Shown here in pieces: positions 5,138-7,708 of a DNA stretch of 64,000 bases (position 1 is the stretch's first letter; every line of letters starts with the position of its first letter). The notes below the pieces were generated by a model. The model was given only the letters and a program-made list of their open reading frames with translations. It ran no database searches and had not been told where the DNA came from. The position numbers and the translations under genes are program-made. This DNA comes from Alphaproteobacteria bacterium (lineage in GTDB: Bacteria > Pseudomonadota > Alphaproteobacteria > Micropepsales > Micropepsaceae): NCBI GenBank assembly GCA_028865545.1, contig JAGWJY010000005.1:43787-107786 (forward strand), read 5' to 3'.

Positions 5138-5539
5138 CTATTCCGCGACCGTCACCGTGACGGAAAAAATCTGCGCGGGCGGCTTGTCGGTTTCCCACGG
5201 CCGACGGTAGTCGAGCCTGAGCATGCCCTTGCCGGCGGCGACCGCCAAAAAATCCAACGCCTGCAACTGGGCACCGCCCGGCATGGTGGCGGCGCTCTGC
5301 ACCGACGAGCCTTCGAATTTCAGAAGCGGCGTTGAATCCCCAGCCACGACCCAGGAATAACCGGTTCCCGCCTGCTCTTTCAGAAGCACGCTGAGATGCC
5401 GCCCGACAGCCAGGGTGAACGATTTTCCGGCGTCGGCCTGGTGTATGACGAGAGGATCAGGAGATGCGCCCATCGCTTGGCTACCTGTGGCGAACAGCGC
5501 GGCCATGCACAGCCCAGCGAGAAATTTGTTCGTGTTCAT
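5138..5539 (-). CDS. Chagasin-type (I42 family) peptidase inhibitor, secreted
   Basis: Start ATG at 5539 with GGAGGA upstream; signal peptide; GTGYSW loop, PGGAQLQALDFLAVAAGKGMLRLDYRRPW (RPW loop), C-terminal FSVTVTV strand. Confidence 0.82.
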   Translation of the reverse strand: MNTNKFLAGLCMAALFATGSQAMGASPDPLVIHQADAGKSFTLAVGRHLSVLLKEQAGTGYSWVVAGDSTPLLKFEGSSVQSAATMPGGAQLQALDFLAVAAGKGMLRLDYRRPWETDKPPAQIFSVTVTVAE

Positions 5540-5601
5540 GACGCGTCCTCCGGGACGACTTTCCGCGCAGATTGCGACGAAACTTTGAACTCTCAAGAAA
5601 G

Positions 5602-5625
5602 CCCCCGGAGCTTGCGCTCCGGGGG
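5602..5625 (-). terminator. Perfect 10-bp stem, 4-nt loop hairpin between protease and inhibitor genes
   Basis: CCCCCGGAGC-TTGC-GCTCCGGGGG; on the minus strand followed by CTTTCTT, downstream of the C1 protease stop. Confidence 0.75.
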
Positions 5626-5643
5626 ACAGCATATTTCTACCGA

Positions 5644-6858
5644 TCAATGCTGAATTTGCTGCATGTTCTGCATCGGTTGCACATGTTCCGGTCCCGGATT
5701 CGGAATCGGGATCAATTTATACCTGGCAATGACATCAATGAGCTGGCGTGGAATGACGAACTTGTTGCTCGGCGCCTGCACCCAGGCCGCGTGATAGCCG
5801 ATATTGTTCGAGCCATACGCAATCCAGATATAGCCGCTGAGGCCCCAGCCCGTGCCCCACGAGTTTTTCACCAGCCAGGCATGCTTTACATCGTCCCAAC
5901 CGACGATCGTCACGGCGTGGTTGTAGGCCGTCATCGGTCCCTGGTTGAGAACACCGCCCGTGTAGGCCTGGAAGGCCGGCGTCGCCATCACAGCCACCGC
6001 CAGCGGGCCATGCGCGCACAGCGCCGCCTTGATCTGATCGACGGTCGGAACGGCGCCGCCCGGTGCCACCCAACCCCATGCCACATCCTGATAAAGGCCG
6101 CTGAGCCCGGATGGGCAGGTGGCATCATGTGCCGTGTATGGCAGGGTTCCCGTAGCGACGACCTTGTGAGTCAGCATCCAGTCCCACACCGGCATGTACC
6201 AGCCGCCGCCGCAAGTGCCAGCGCCGGCGCAATCGAGGATGTGCTGCTCCGACGCATTGATCATGACGTTGTTGCGGATGGCATAAGCGGATTCATAGGC
6301 GGCGACCGCCGCGAAATCCCAACAGCTGCCGCAACCGCCCTGATCTTTCACCGGCGTCACCTTGCCAAGCGTCCGCCAGTCGAAGGCCGCTGAGGAGGCA
6401 TGGCAGGCAAGAACAAACGGACCGACGTGGTATTTCATCGCTTCGGCGTCGTAGACTTTTATCGCGTCGGCGGCGAAGGCGTTCTGCTGCGGCGCTTTTT
6501 CCGCGATGCCTGCCGGCTCCTTGGCGCCGGTCAATTGCGCCAAAGAGCGATCCATCGCCGTCGTGTACCCGACGGTGAAGGTCCAGCCTCGTTGTTTGCC
6601 TTCCGCCTGCAAGGCATCGAGGCGCGCCCTGATCTGCGGCGGAGCCATCTTCAGCCGGTTCGCATAGAAGGCTTCCTGCTGGGTGTTGACCTGCGCCTGT
6701 ACGGGCGTCGCCATCATTGTGGAATTCGCCATGCCTTGGGCGCCGGCGTGTCCGGCAGCAAGACAGAAGGCGGCTGCGAAAATTGCTGTCGATACAGCTC
6801 GGCCAGATAACGCAGGCCGAGCGGATGCATACGCGAACACGTGTGTGTTTCTGCGCAT
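5644..6858 (-). CDS. Papain-family (C1) cysteine peptidase, secreted
   Basis: Signal peptide; KDQGGCGSCWDFAA (Gln/Cys), YNHAVTIVGWDD (His), LVKNSWGTGWGLSGYIWIA (Asn) all intact. Confidence 0.92.
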   Translation of the reverse strand: MRRNTHVFAYASARPALSGRAVSTAIFAAAFCLAAGHAGAQGMANSTMMATPVQAQVNTQQEAFYANRLKMAPPQIRARLDALQAEGKQRGWTFTVGYTTAMDRSLAQLTGAKEPAGIAEKAPQQNAFAADAIKVYDAEAMKYHVGPFVLACHASSAAFDWRTLGKVTPVKDQGGCGSCWDFAAVAAYESAYAIRNNVMINASEQHILDCAGAGTCGGGWYMPVWDWMLTHKVVATGTLPYTAHDATCPSGLSGLYQDVAWGWVAPGGAVPTVDQIKAALCAHGPLAVAVMATPAFQAYTGGVLNQGPMTAYNHAVTIVGWDDVKHAWLVKNSWGTGWGLSGYIWIAYGSNNIGYHAAWVQAPSNKFVIPRQLIDVIARYKLIPIPNPGPEHVQPMQNMQQIQH

Positions 6859-7110
6859 CGGCGCTCTCCTTTGTTGACGCCGTTAAGATTACTCTCGCCA
6901 GCAAGTTGTCACAATGTCGCAGTTGTGAATGTTCGATGCCGTCATAGTATTGATAGTCAATATCAAATATTACGATTCCGACATTCAAATATTGTGGAAT
7001 TTACATATCAAACAATTACTTGCAGATATTTTGCAGCACCGACCGTGCCGCCGTTATGCGCGGCTTCCTGTCGAAAAACCGCGATCCGGTGCTTTATCGG
7101 AAGGCGGATG

Positions 7111-7587
7111 TTACTTCGGTGCGGGATTCATCGTGCCCATATCGGCCGCCAGCTTCCACTCGCCCTCGGCATCCTTCTTCCAAACCGTCAGATAATGCCC
7201 GCTGGCCTTGGGGCGCACGCCGTTTTCATTTGGCGCACCGACGAAGGTCCACACACCGTCGGTCCAGCCCACGGTTGCGTCCGCGGAGACATCCGCATGC
7301 TCAGGCGACCAGCTCAGCACATTGGCCGCGGGATCGCCGTTGCCATGCTCGGCGAAGCGTTTCGCCGCCGCCTCTTTGCCGTAGATCGGCGGCTCGGTGC
7401 CGATGCCGAAGATGCGGCCGTCATCGGCCATGTAGAAGAGAAACGCCGCGTTCGACCCCTTGGCGATCGACATGGCCGAAAAGGCTCTGTCGGTATTCAT
7501 CAGGTCTTCCGTCGGTCCGGCGAAAGACTGCGATAAGGAAGACGTTGCGGCAAGAATCAAAACGAACACAAATCGGCGTGTACGCAT
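7111..7587 (-). CDS. Secreted DUF4440/NTF2-like (SnoaL-like) protein
   Basis: MRTRRFVFVLILAATSSLSQSFA signal peptide; DLMNTDRAFSAMSIAKGSNAAFLFYMADDGRIF... HYLTVWKKDAEGEWKLAADMGTMNP. Confidence 0.7.
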   Translation of the reverse strand: MRTRRFVFVLILAATSSLSQSFAGPTEDLMNTDRAFSAMSIAKGSNAAFLFYMADDGRIFGIGTEPPIYGKEAAAKRFAEHGNGDPAANVLSWSPEHADVSADATVGWTDGVWTFVGAPNENGVRPKASGHYLTVWKKDAEGEWKLAADMGTMNPAPK

Positions 7588-7708
7588 CTGCAATTCTCCC
7601 CAATTGTGGCGGGCCTGCCGCATTCCGTCCTCAAAACCGACGCGAAACGGTTTGTTTACTATATGGCGAGGGTTCCGGTTTCGCGAGAGGAAACGATGGG
7701 GGAATGCC

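What the first reader, a model, noticed from the sequence alone, without database searches (positions are those of the whole stretch)
5138..6858. Papain-family protease encoded directly upstream of a chagasin-type inhibitor
Sequence: a secreted C1 protease with all four catalytic positions intact (Q/C in KDQGGCGSCW, H in YNHAVTIVGW, N in KNSWGTGWG) is followed on the same strand by a secreted I42-like inhibitor with the GTGYSW and RPW loops. Knowledge: chagasin-family inhibitors block papain-like enzymes, but many bacteria with I42 genes have no obvious cognate C1 protease. Inference: this is a dedicated protease/inhibitor (self-protection or activity-timing) cassette, a minimal two-gene module like a secreted-effector/immunity pair.
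Basis: partly seen in the sequence, partly recalled or inferred. Interest (0 to 1): 0.7.

Follow-up and report, generated by a model that had tools for sequence, protein, structure and literature searches.

The report
Papain-like protease beside chagasin-type inhibitor
An uncultured alphaproteobacterium carries, side by side, its only papain-like secreted protease and its only chagasin-type inhibitor of such proteases; the same pairing recurs in distant bacterial phyla, so the inhibitor very probably guards the cell against its own enzyme.

Summary
Both genes are on the minus strand: C1A pre-pro-protease 6858..5644 (PF00112 E 8e-50, catalytic Q/C/H/N present) and exported I42 inhibitor 5539..5138 (PF09394 E 4.5e-15, chagasin fold). 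They are the only C1 and only I42 found in this genome. The adjacency is widespread: in a tree of 81 C1 proteins the window enzyme lies in a fully supported set of 20 from several phyla, where 17 of 18 members with readable flanks have an I42 gene next door (either side), against 6 of 33 in the sister set (three of them fusions). Two more signs of matching: 17 of 18 I42s paired with this set carry a GTG loop where pairs outside it have TTG/STG/ATG, and export signals agree in all 14 pairs examined (12 both, 2 neither). A hairpin like an intrinsic terminator is conserved between the genes, so this is not a plain operon. Inhibition of the neighbour is inferred, not measured. It works like SpeB/Spi and staphopain/staphostatin, with unrelated families and an exported inhibitor. 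No paper in the held library describes C1-I42 linkage. The effector/immunity reading is not shown.

The parts
5644..6858 (-). C1A papain-like pre-pro-protease, 404 aa, only C1 gene found in the genome
   Evidence: PF00112 E 8.3e-50; single genome hit; model pLDDT 86, Foldseek to procathepsins and propapain
6739..6858 (-). Signal peptide of the protease, about residues 1-40 (cleavage site by eye)
   Evidence: Hydrophobic stretch near the N-terminus; not run through SignalP
6433..6705 (-). Pro-domain, about residues 52-142, with motif VGYTxAxDxxLxQLxG; cathepsin-propeptide-like fold, no Pfam I29 hit
   Evidence: Confident helices in model, Foldseek alignment spans whole pro-enzymes, no I29 match in 81 members
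5800..6390 (-). Catalytic domain, residues 157-353, Q173, C179, H314, N332
   Evidence: Pfam stretch, conservation
5602..5625 (-). Intrinsic-terminator-like hairpin between the two genes
   Evidence: same place in G040 and G063 with altered loop and tail; -24 to -28 kcal/mol
5138..5539 (-). I42 chagasin-family inhibitor, 133 aa, only I42 gene found in the genome
   Evidence: PF09394 E 4.5e-15; single genome hit; model pLDDT 88, Foldseek to EhICP2 and chagasin
5465..5539 (-). Signal peptide of the inhibitor, about residues 1-25 (cleavage site by eye)
   Evidence: Hydrophobic N-terminus, no lipobox
5351..5371 (-). BC loop AGTGYSW (residues 57-63), Gly where chagasin has the first Thr of NPTTG
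   Evidence: GTG in 17 of 18 inhibitors paired with this C1 set, 0 of 6 pairs outside it
5195..5203 (-). FG loop RPW (residues 113-115)
   Evidence: Alignment

Best explanation
A dedicated protease/inhibitor pair. The C1A enzyme is exported as a zymogen kept inactive by a divergent cathepsin-type pro-domain (inferred from the model). Once matured it acts in the periplasm or outside the cell, most likely as a digestive enzyme (inferred). The I42 protein is exported to the same compartment and plugs the active-site cleft of enzyme that matures too early or stays in the envelope, through its GTG, PGG and RPW loops (inferred from the family: chagasins bind papain-like enzymes with three loops, PMC7863939). 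The conserved hairpin between the genes lets the protease be transcribed alone or in excess, or the inhibitor separately, so the inhibitor sets a threshold (inferred). Shown here: both families, both folds, sole members in this genome, adjacency conserved over phyla, loop signature, agreement of export signals.
For: Only C1 and only I42 of the genome are neighbours. Pair kept in G063, and in G040 as far as the contig reaches. In the 20-member C1 set 17 of 18 with readable flanks have I42 adjacent, against 6 of 33 in the sister set (Fisher 1e-7, relatedness ignored); both gene orders, plus fusions L179, L195, L200. GTG loop in 17 of 18 inhibitors paired with the set against 0 of 6 outside. Export signals agree in 14 of 14 pairs, including two without signal in either protein. 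In the window's order six of seven genera, and most I42-only genomes, lack C1, and the I42-only loops are often eroded.
Against: No inhibition measured. A terminator-like hairpin separates the genes. Only 6 of 26 genomes with C1 but no adjacent I42 have an I42 at all, so many bacterial C1 enzymes manage without one. C1 and I42 distances do not correlate within the 12 closest pairs. The first Thr of NPTTG, whose change together with its neighbour lowers affinity for papain (PMC5014320), is Gly here, so affinity could be low.
Confidence: 0.72

Rival explanations
1. The I42 protein mainly blocks foreign papain-like proteases (from protists, plants, predators or other microbes), as Cip1 of Pseudomonas syringae does, and sits beside the C1 gene because both belong to one locus for exported proteins.
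For: Cip1 inhibits tomato proteases and papain (Ki 4 nM) and most Pseudomonas genomes lack C1A (PMC5014320); orphan I42 genes are common here too; Legionella I42 is enriched among type II secreted proteins (PMC12239567).
Against: It does not explain adjacency in several phyla, fusions to C1, the loop that tracks the C1 set, or pairs in which both proteins lack a signal.
Confidence: 0.13
2. The I42 protein is a folding helper or export chaperone of the protease rather than a brake, or serves both ends, as was suggested for staphostatin.
For: Pairs always share compartment; a chaperone role for staphostatin has been suggested (cited in PMC3462683).
Against: The enzyme has its own cathepsin-like pro-domain, which in this family does the folding work (general knowledge); the inhibitory loops RPW and GTG are kept in pairs and eroded in orphans.
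Confidence: 0.07
3. The pair is a toxin/immunity unit used against neighbouring bacteria.
For: Two-gene layout, patchy distribution within the order, and recurrence in distant phyla.
Against: No delivery domain, no secretion-system gene beside it, no variable toxin tip; plain signal peptide and pro-domain.
Confidence: 0.05

Closest known systems
SpeB/Spi, staphopain/staphostatin and Bacteroides C10 protease/inhibitor pairs (PMC3462683)
   Same: Contiguous genes for an exported papain-fold cysteine protease and a small beta-sheet inhibitor; inhibitor on either side of the protease gene in Bacteroides, as here
   Different: Other families (C10, C47; Spi, I57); Spi and staphostatins are thought to act in the cytoplasm whereas this I42 is exported; those pairs are co-transcribed, here a conserved terminator-like hairpin intervenes
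Chagasin/cruzipain and other protozoan I42 (ICP) inhibitors
   Same: I42 fold and loops controlling an endogenous C1A enzyme
   Different: No signal peptide and no gene linkage described in the protozoa; NPTTG instead of GTG loop
Cip1 of Pseudomonas syringae and ICP of P. aeruginosa
   Same: Exported bacterial I42; P. aeruginosa ICP is the closest solved relative of the window inhibitor
   Different: Most Pseudomonas genomes lack C1A; Cip1 blocks host proteases; NPTTG loop (PMC5014320)

Membership tests
MEROPS C1A (papain) peptidases | Papain fold domain with Gln, Cys, His, Asn | tested here: met
MEROPS C1A (papain) peptidases | Synthesis as a zymogen with an inhibitory pro-domain | tested here: inconclusive
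   Pro-domain fold seen in the model and matched to pro-enzymes, but no Pfam I29 hit and no biochemistry
MEROPS C1A (papain) peptidases | Proteolytic activity blocked by E-64 | not testable with these tools
   Needs purified enzyme
MEROPS I42 (chagasin) inhibitors | I42 sequence profile and Ig-like chagasin fold | tested here: met
MEROPS I42 (chagasin) inhibitors | Three binding loops NPTTG, GxGG, RPW | tested here: inconclusive
   RPW kept; BC loop is AGTG and DE loop PGGAQ, variants shared by the paired subset
MEROPS I42 (chagasin) inhibitors | Inhibition of papain-like enzymes | not testable with these tools
   Needs a Ki measurement
Staphopain/staphostatin and SpeB/Spi type pairs | Contiguous protease and inhibitor genes, conserved in relatives | tested here: met
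Staphopain/staphostatin and SpeB/Spi type pairs | Co-transcription | tested here: inconclusive
   Same strand, 104-bp gap, but a conserved terminator-like hairpin; no RNA data
Staphopain/staphostatin and SpeB/Spi type pairs | C47 or C10 enzyme with a cytoplasmic I57- or Spi-type inhibitor | tested here: not met
   C1A enzyme, I42 inhibitor with a signal peptide: it works like these pairs but is not a member

The most novel reading that the evidence does not exclude
C1A-I42 pairs are an old bacterial self-protection module found across phyla, in which the inhibitor's BC loop (GTG against TTG) has co-evolved with one clade of enzymes; orphan bacterial chagasins would then be inhibitors that lost their own enzyme and turned to other targets.
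Probability: 0.4. Interest if true: 0.7.

Novelty: new variant of a known kind. Interest (0 to 1): 0.57.

Why it matters
A 2016 study states that a role for bacterial chagasins had not been elucidated and notes that most Pseudomonas lack a C1A target (PMC5014320); an earlier survey notes that a bacterial chagasin had been verified only against a eukaryotic enzyme (PMC2784779). The pairs found here name a likely physical target for the inhibitor in about twenty lineages, some with named relatives (Dolichospermum, Sphingomonas, Lutibacter, Levilinea), so the question becomes directly testable. The GTG loop offers a built-in specificity experiment.

Tried and rejected
Plain operon: weakened by the conserved hairpin. 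Tree mirroring as proof of co-evolution: significant over 21 pairs but absent among the 12 closest, so it shows joint inheritance at depth at most. Pro-region motif as predictor of an I42 neighbour: the pattern was too crude and the sister set has a variant of it. Promoter scan: none found, uninformative here. The window pair as a plasmid passenger: only distant C1 hits on plasmids. First count of the loop signature left out L070, which has SAG; corrected.

Full report
WHAT IS THERE. Both genes are on the minus strand. The protease runs 6858..5644 (404 aa), the inhibitor 5539..5138 (133 aa). Pfam places them in Peptidase_C1 (E 8.3e-50) and Inhibitor_I42 (E 4.5e-15), far above the curated cut-offs. 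Catalytic Q173, C179, H314 and N332 are present; over 81 relatives the first two are invariant and the others at least 90% conserved. The protease's best solved relatives are bromelain, ananain, ficin and cathepsins, the inhibitor's P. aeruginosa ICP, amoebiasins and chagasin. The inhibitor's open frame begins at TTG 5647, overlapping the protease stop, but the likely start is ATG 5539, where relatives also start and a signal peptide follows.

STRUCTURE. AlphaFold2 with alignments of loci fetched here gives confident models (inhibitor pLDDT 88, protease 86). Foldseek matches the inhibitor to EhICP2 (E 6e-10) and to chagasin alone or bound to cathepsin L or falcipain. It matches the protease to whole pro-enzymes (procathepsins K and L, propapain) over about 330 columns, so residues 52-142 form a cathepsin-like pro-domain, although no member of the alignment reaches the Pfam I29 model.

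BETWEEN THE GENES. The 104-bp gap holds CCCCCGGAGC-GCAA-GCTCCGGGGG followed by CTTTCTT at 5625-5602. G040 and G063 have the same stem in the same place with other loop and tail (-24 to -28 kcal/mol). I read it as a conserved, probably leaky terminator. The scan shows no excess of such sites over shuffles in this region, so conservation in place carries the point, not the hit itself.

CO-OCCURRENCE. One C1 and one I42 were found in the genome. In its order (96 genomes) C1 is found in 6 and I42 in 10. The intact pair is in G000 and G063. G040's contig ends inside C1 directly upstream of its I42, showing the last 23 codons; G059's contig ends 26 bases after C1. A third order member, G049, has the different ImmA type described at the end. 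Upstream, a DUF4440 gene is shared by the window, G063 and G059; downstream neighbours differ (hisE in G063 and G040, a sensor kinase and LytTR regulator in the window), so the conserved unit is the pair. In the class sample both families occur together in 7 of 387 genomes against 1.3 expected (p 7e-5), always within 2 kb; in the phylum sample in 4 of 399 against 1.4 (p 0.04), adjacent in 3. Most of these cases beyond G000 are the ImmA type.

BEYOND THE PHYLUM. A scan of one genome per GTDB species with the C1 alignment gave 80 loci. An I42 profile built from 47 Pfam-identified loci was run over six frames of their flanks. In the tree of 81 catalytic domains (quick method, SH-aLRT support) the window lies in a set of 20, split from the rest with support 100, with members from Pseudomonadota, Acidobacteriota, Cyanobacteriota, Chloroflexota, Thermodesulfobacteriota, Spirochaetota and Bacteroidota (labels as in the records, many of them MAGs). 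Of these 17 have an I42 neighbour, 2 are cut by a contig end and 1 (L137, a long branch) has none. The match in L136 is weak (27 bits). In the sister set of 61, 27 have none, 6 have a neighbour or fusion, and 28 are too short to tell. I42 lies downstream in most but upstream in L124, L125 and L127, on the opposite strand in L134, and is fused to C1 in L179, L195 and L200. Of 26 genomes whose C1 has no I42 beside it, 6 have an I42 anywhere.

MATCHING FEATURES. At the BC loop (NPTTG in chagasin) 17 of 18 inhibitors paired with the window's C1 set have GTG, the exception being L070 (SAG), whose enzyme is a very long branch; none of 6 pairs or fusions outside the set has it, and the Pseudomonas and other distant orphans have TTG, STG, ATG or similar. 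Orphans in the window's own order are mostly altered at one or more loops, except L063, which keeps GTG and RPW. Signal-like N-termini agree in all 14 pairs examined: 12 exported, 2 (L131, L070) without a signal in either protein (a hydropathy rule, not SignalP). C1 and I42 distances correlate over 21 pairs (rho 0.55, p 5e-4) but not within the 12 closest. The simple tests ignore relatedness.

MECHANISM. Shown: families, folds, linkage, loop and compartment matching. Inferred: export as zymogen, maturation, and blockage of prematurely active or retained enzyme by exported I42 through the GTG, PGG and RPW loops; protease excess or separate control through the hairpin. Not shown: inhibition, transcript structure, substrate.

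PRIOR ART. Contiguous pairs of other families (SpeB/Spi, staphopains/staphostatins, Bacteroides C10) are established (PMC3462683). For bacterial I42, inhibition of own or of host enzymes had been proposed (cited in PMC2784779), a role was called not elucidated in 2016, and Cip1 blocks host proteases (PMC5014320). Ten searches of the held library gave no report of C1A-I42 linkage; most subscription journals are absent, so this does not prove novelty.

A SECOND C1-I42 SYSTEM. In G049 and several others I42 is the C-terminal domain of an ImmA/IrrE-type metallopeptidase, directly beside a short C1 protein without signal. It is unrelated in layout to the window pair, occurs on plasmids of bacteria and an archaeon near defence genes, and is not among PADLOC systems as such, though the ImmA part resembles CapP and the regulator CapH of CBASS. 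It shows that C1 and I42 have been joined more than once, and deserves its own study.

Noticed in passing
L066 4112-9104 (G049); similar in L071-L075; plasmids L202 (Sphingobium pTA15-1), L203 (Haloarcula marina), L204 (Burkholderia glumae): Conserved gene row: small ORF, XRE regulator (CapH-like), ImmA/IrrE-chagasin fusion (CapP-like), short C1 peptidase without signal, ~270-aa unknown protein, often with a phosphopantetheinyl transferase, uracil-DNA glycosylase and MazG_C protein; on plasmids near AbiEii or restriction genes. Looks like an undescribed protease-based defence or stress cassette.
   Followed up: partly
L179, L195, L200: Natural fusions of an I42 domain and a C1 domain in one protein (Myxococcota or Deltaproteobacteria MAG, Levilinea, Chloroflexota MAG).
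   Followed up: partly
L070 6045-8530 (G397): C1 protein of 677 aa with a long C-terminal repeat region, followed by a 99-aa I42; neither has a signal peptide.
   Followed up: partly
window 7114-7671 (-), L060 7915-8391 (-), L061 1485-2090 (-): DUF4440-family gene kept directly upstream of the protease in three species of the genus, with a low-G+C stretch (46%) at 6859-7110 between.
   Followed up: no
L063-L065, L067-L069: Orphan I42 genes of the same order in genomes without any C1; most have altered binding loops, suggesting other targets or decay.
   Followed up: no
C1 proteins of A3, residues 94-111 of P0002: Divergent cathepsin-type pro-domain with motif VGYTxAxDxxLxQLxG, not covered by Pfam I29.
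   Followed up: partly
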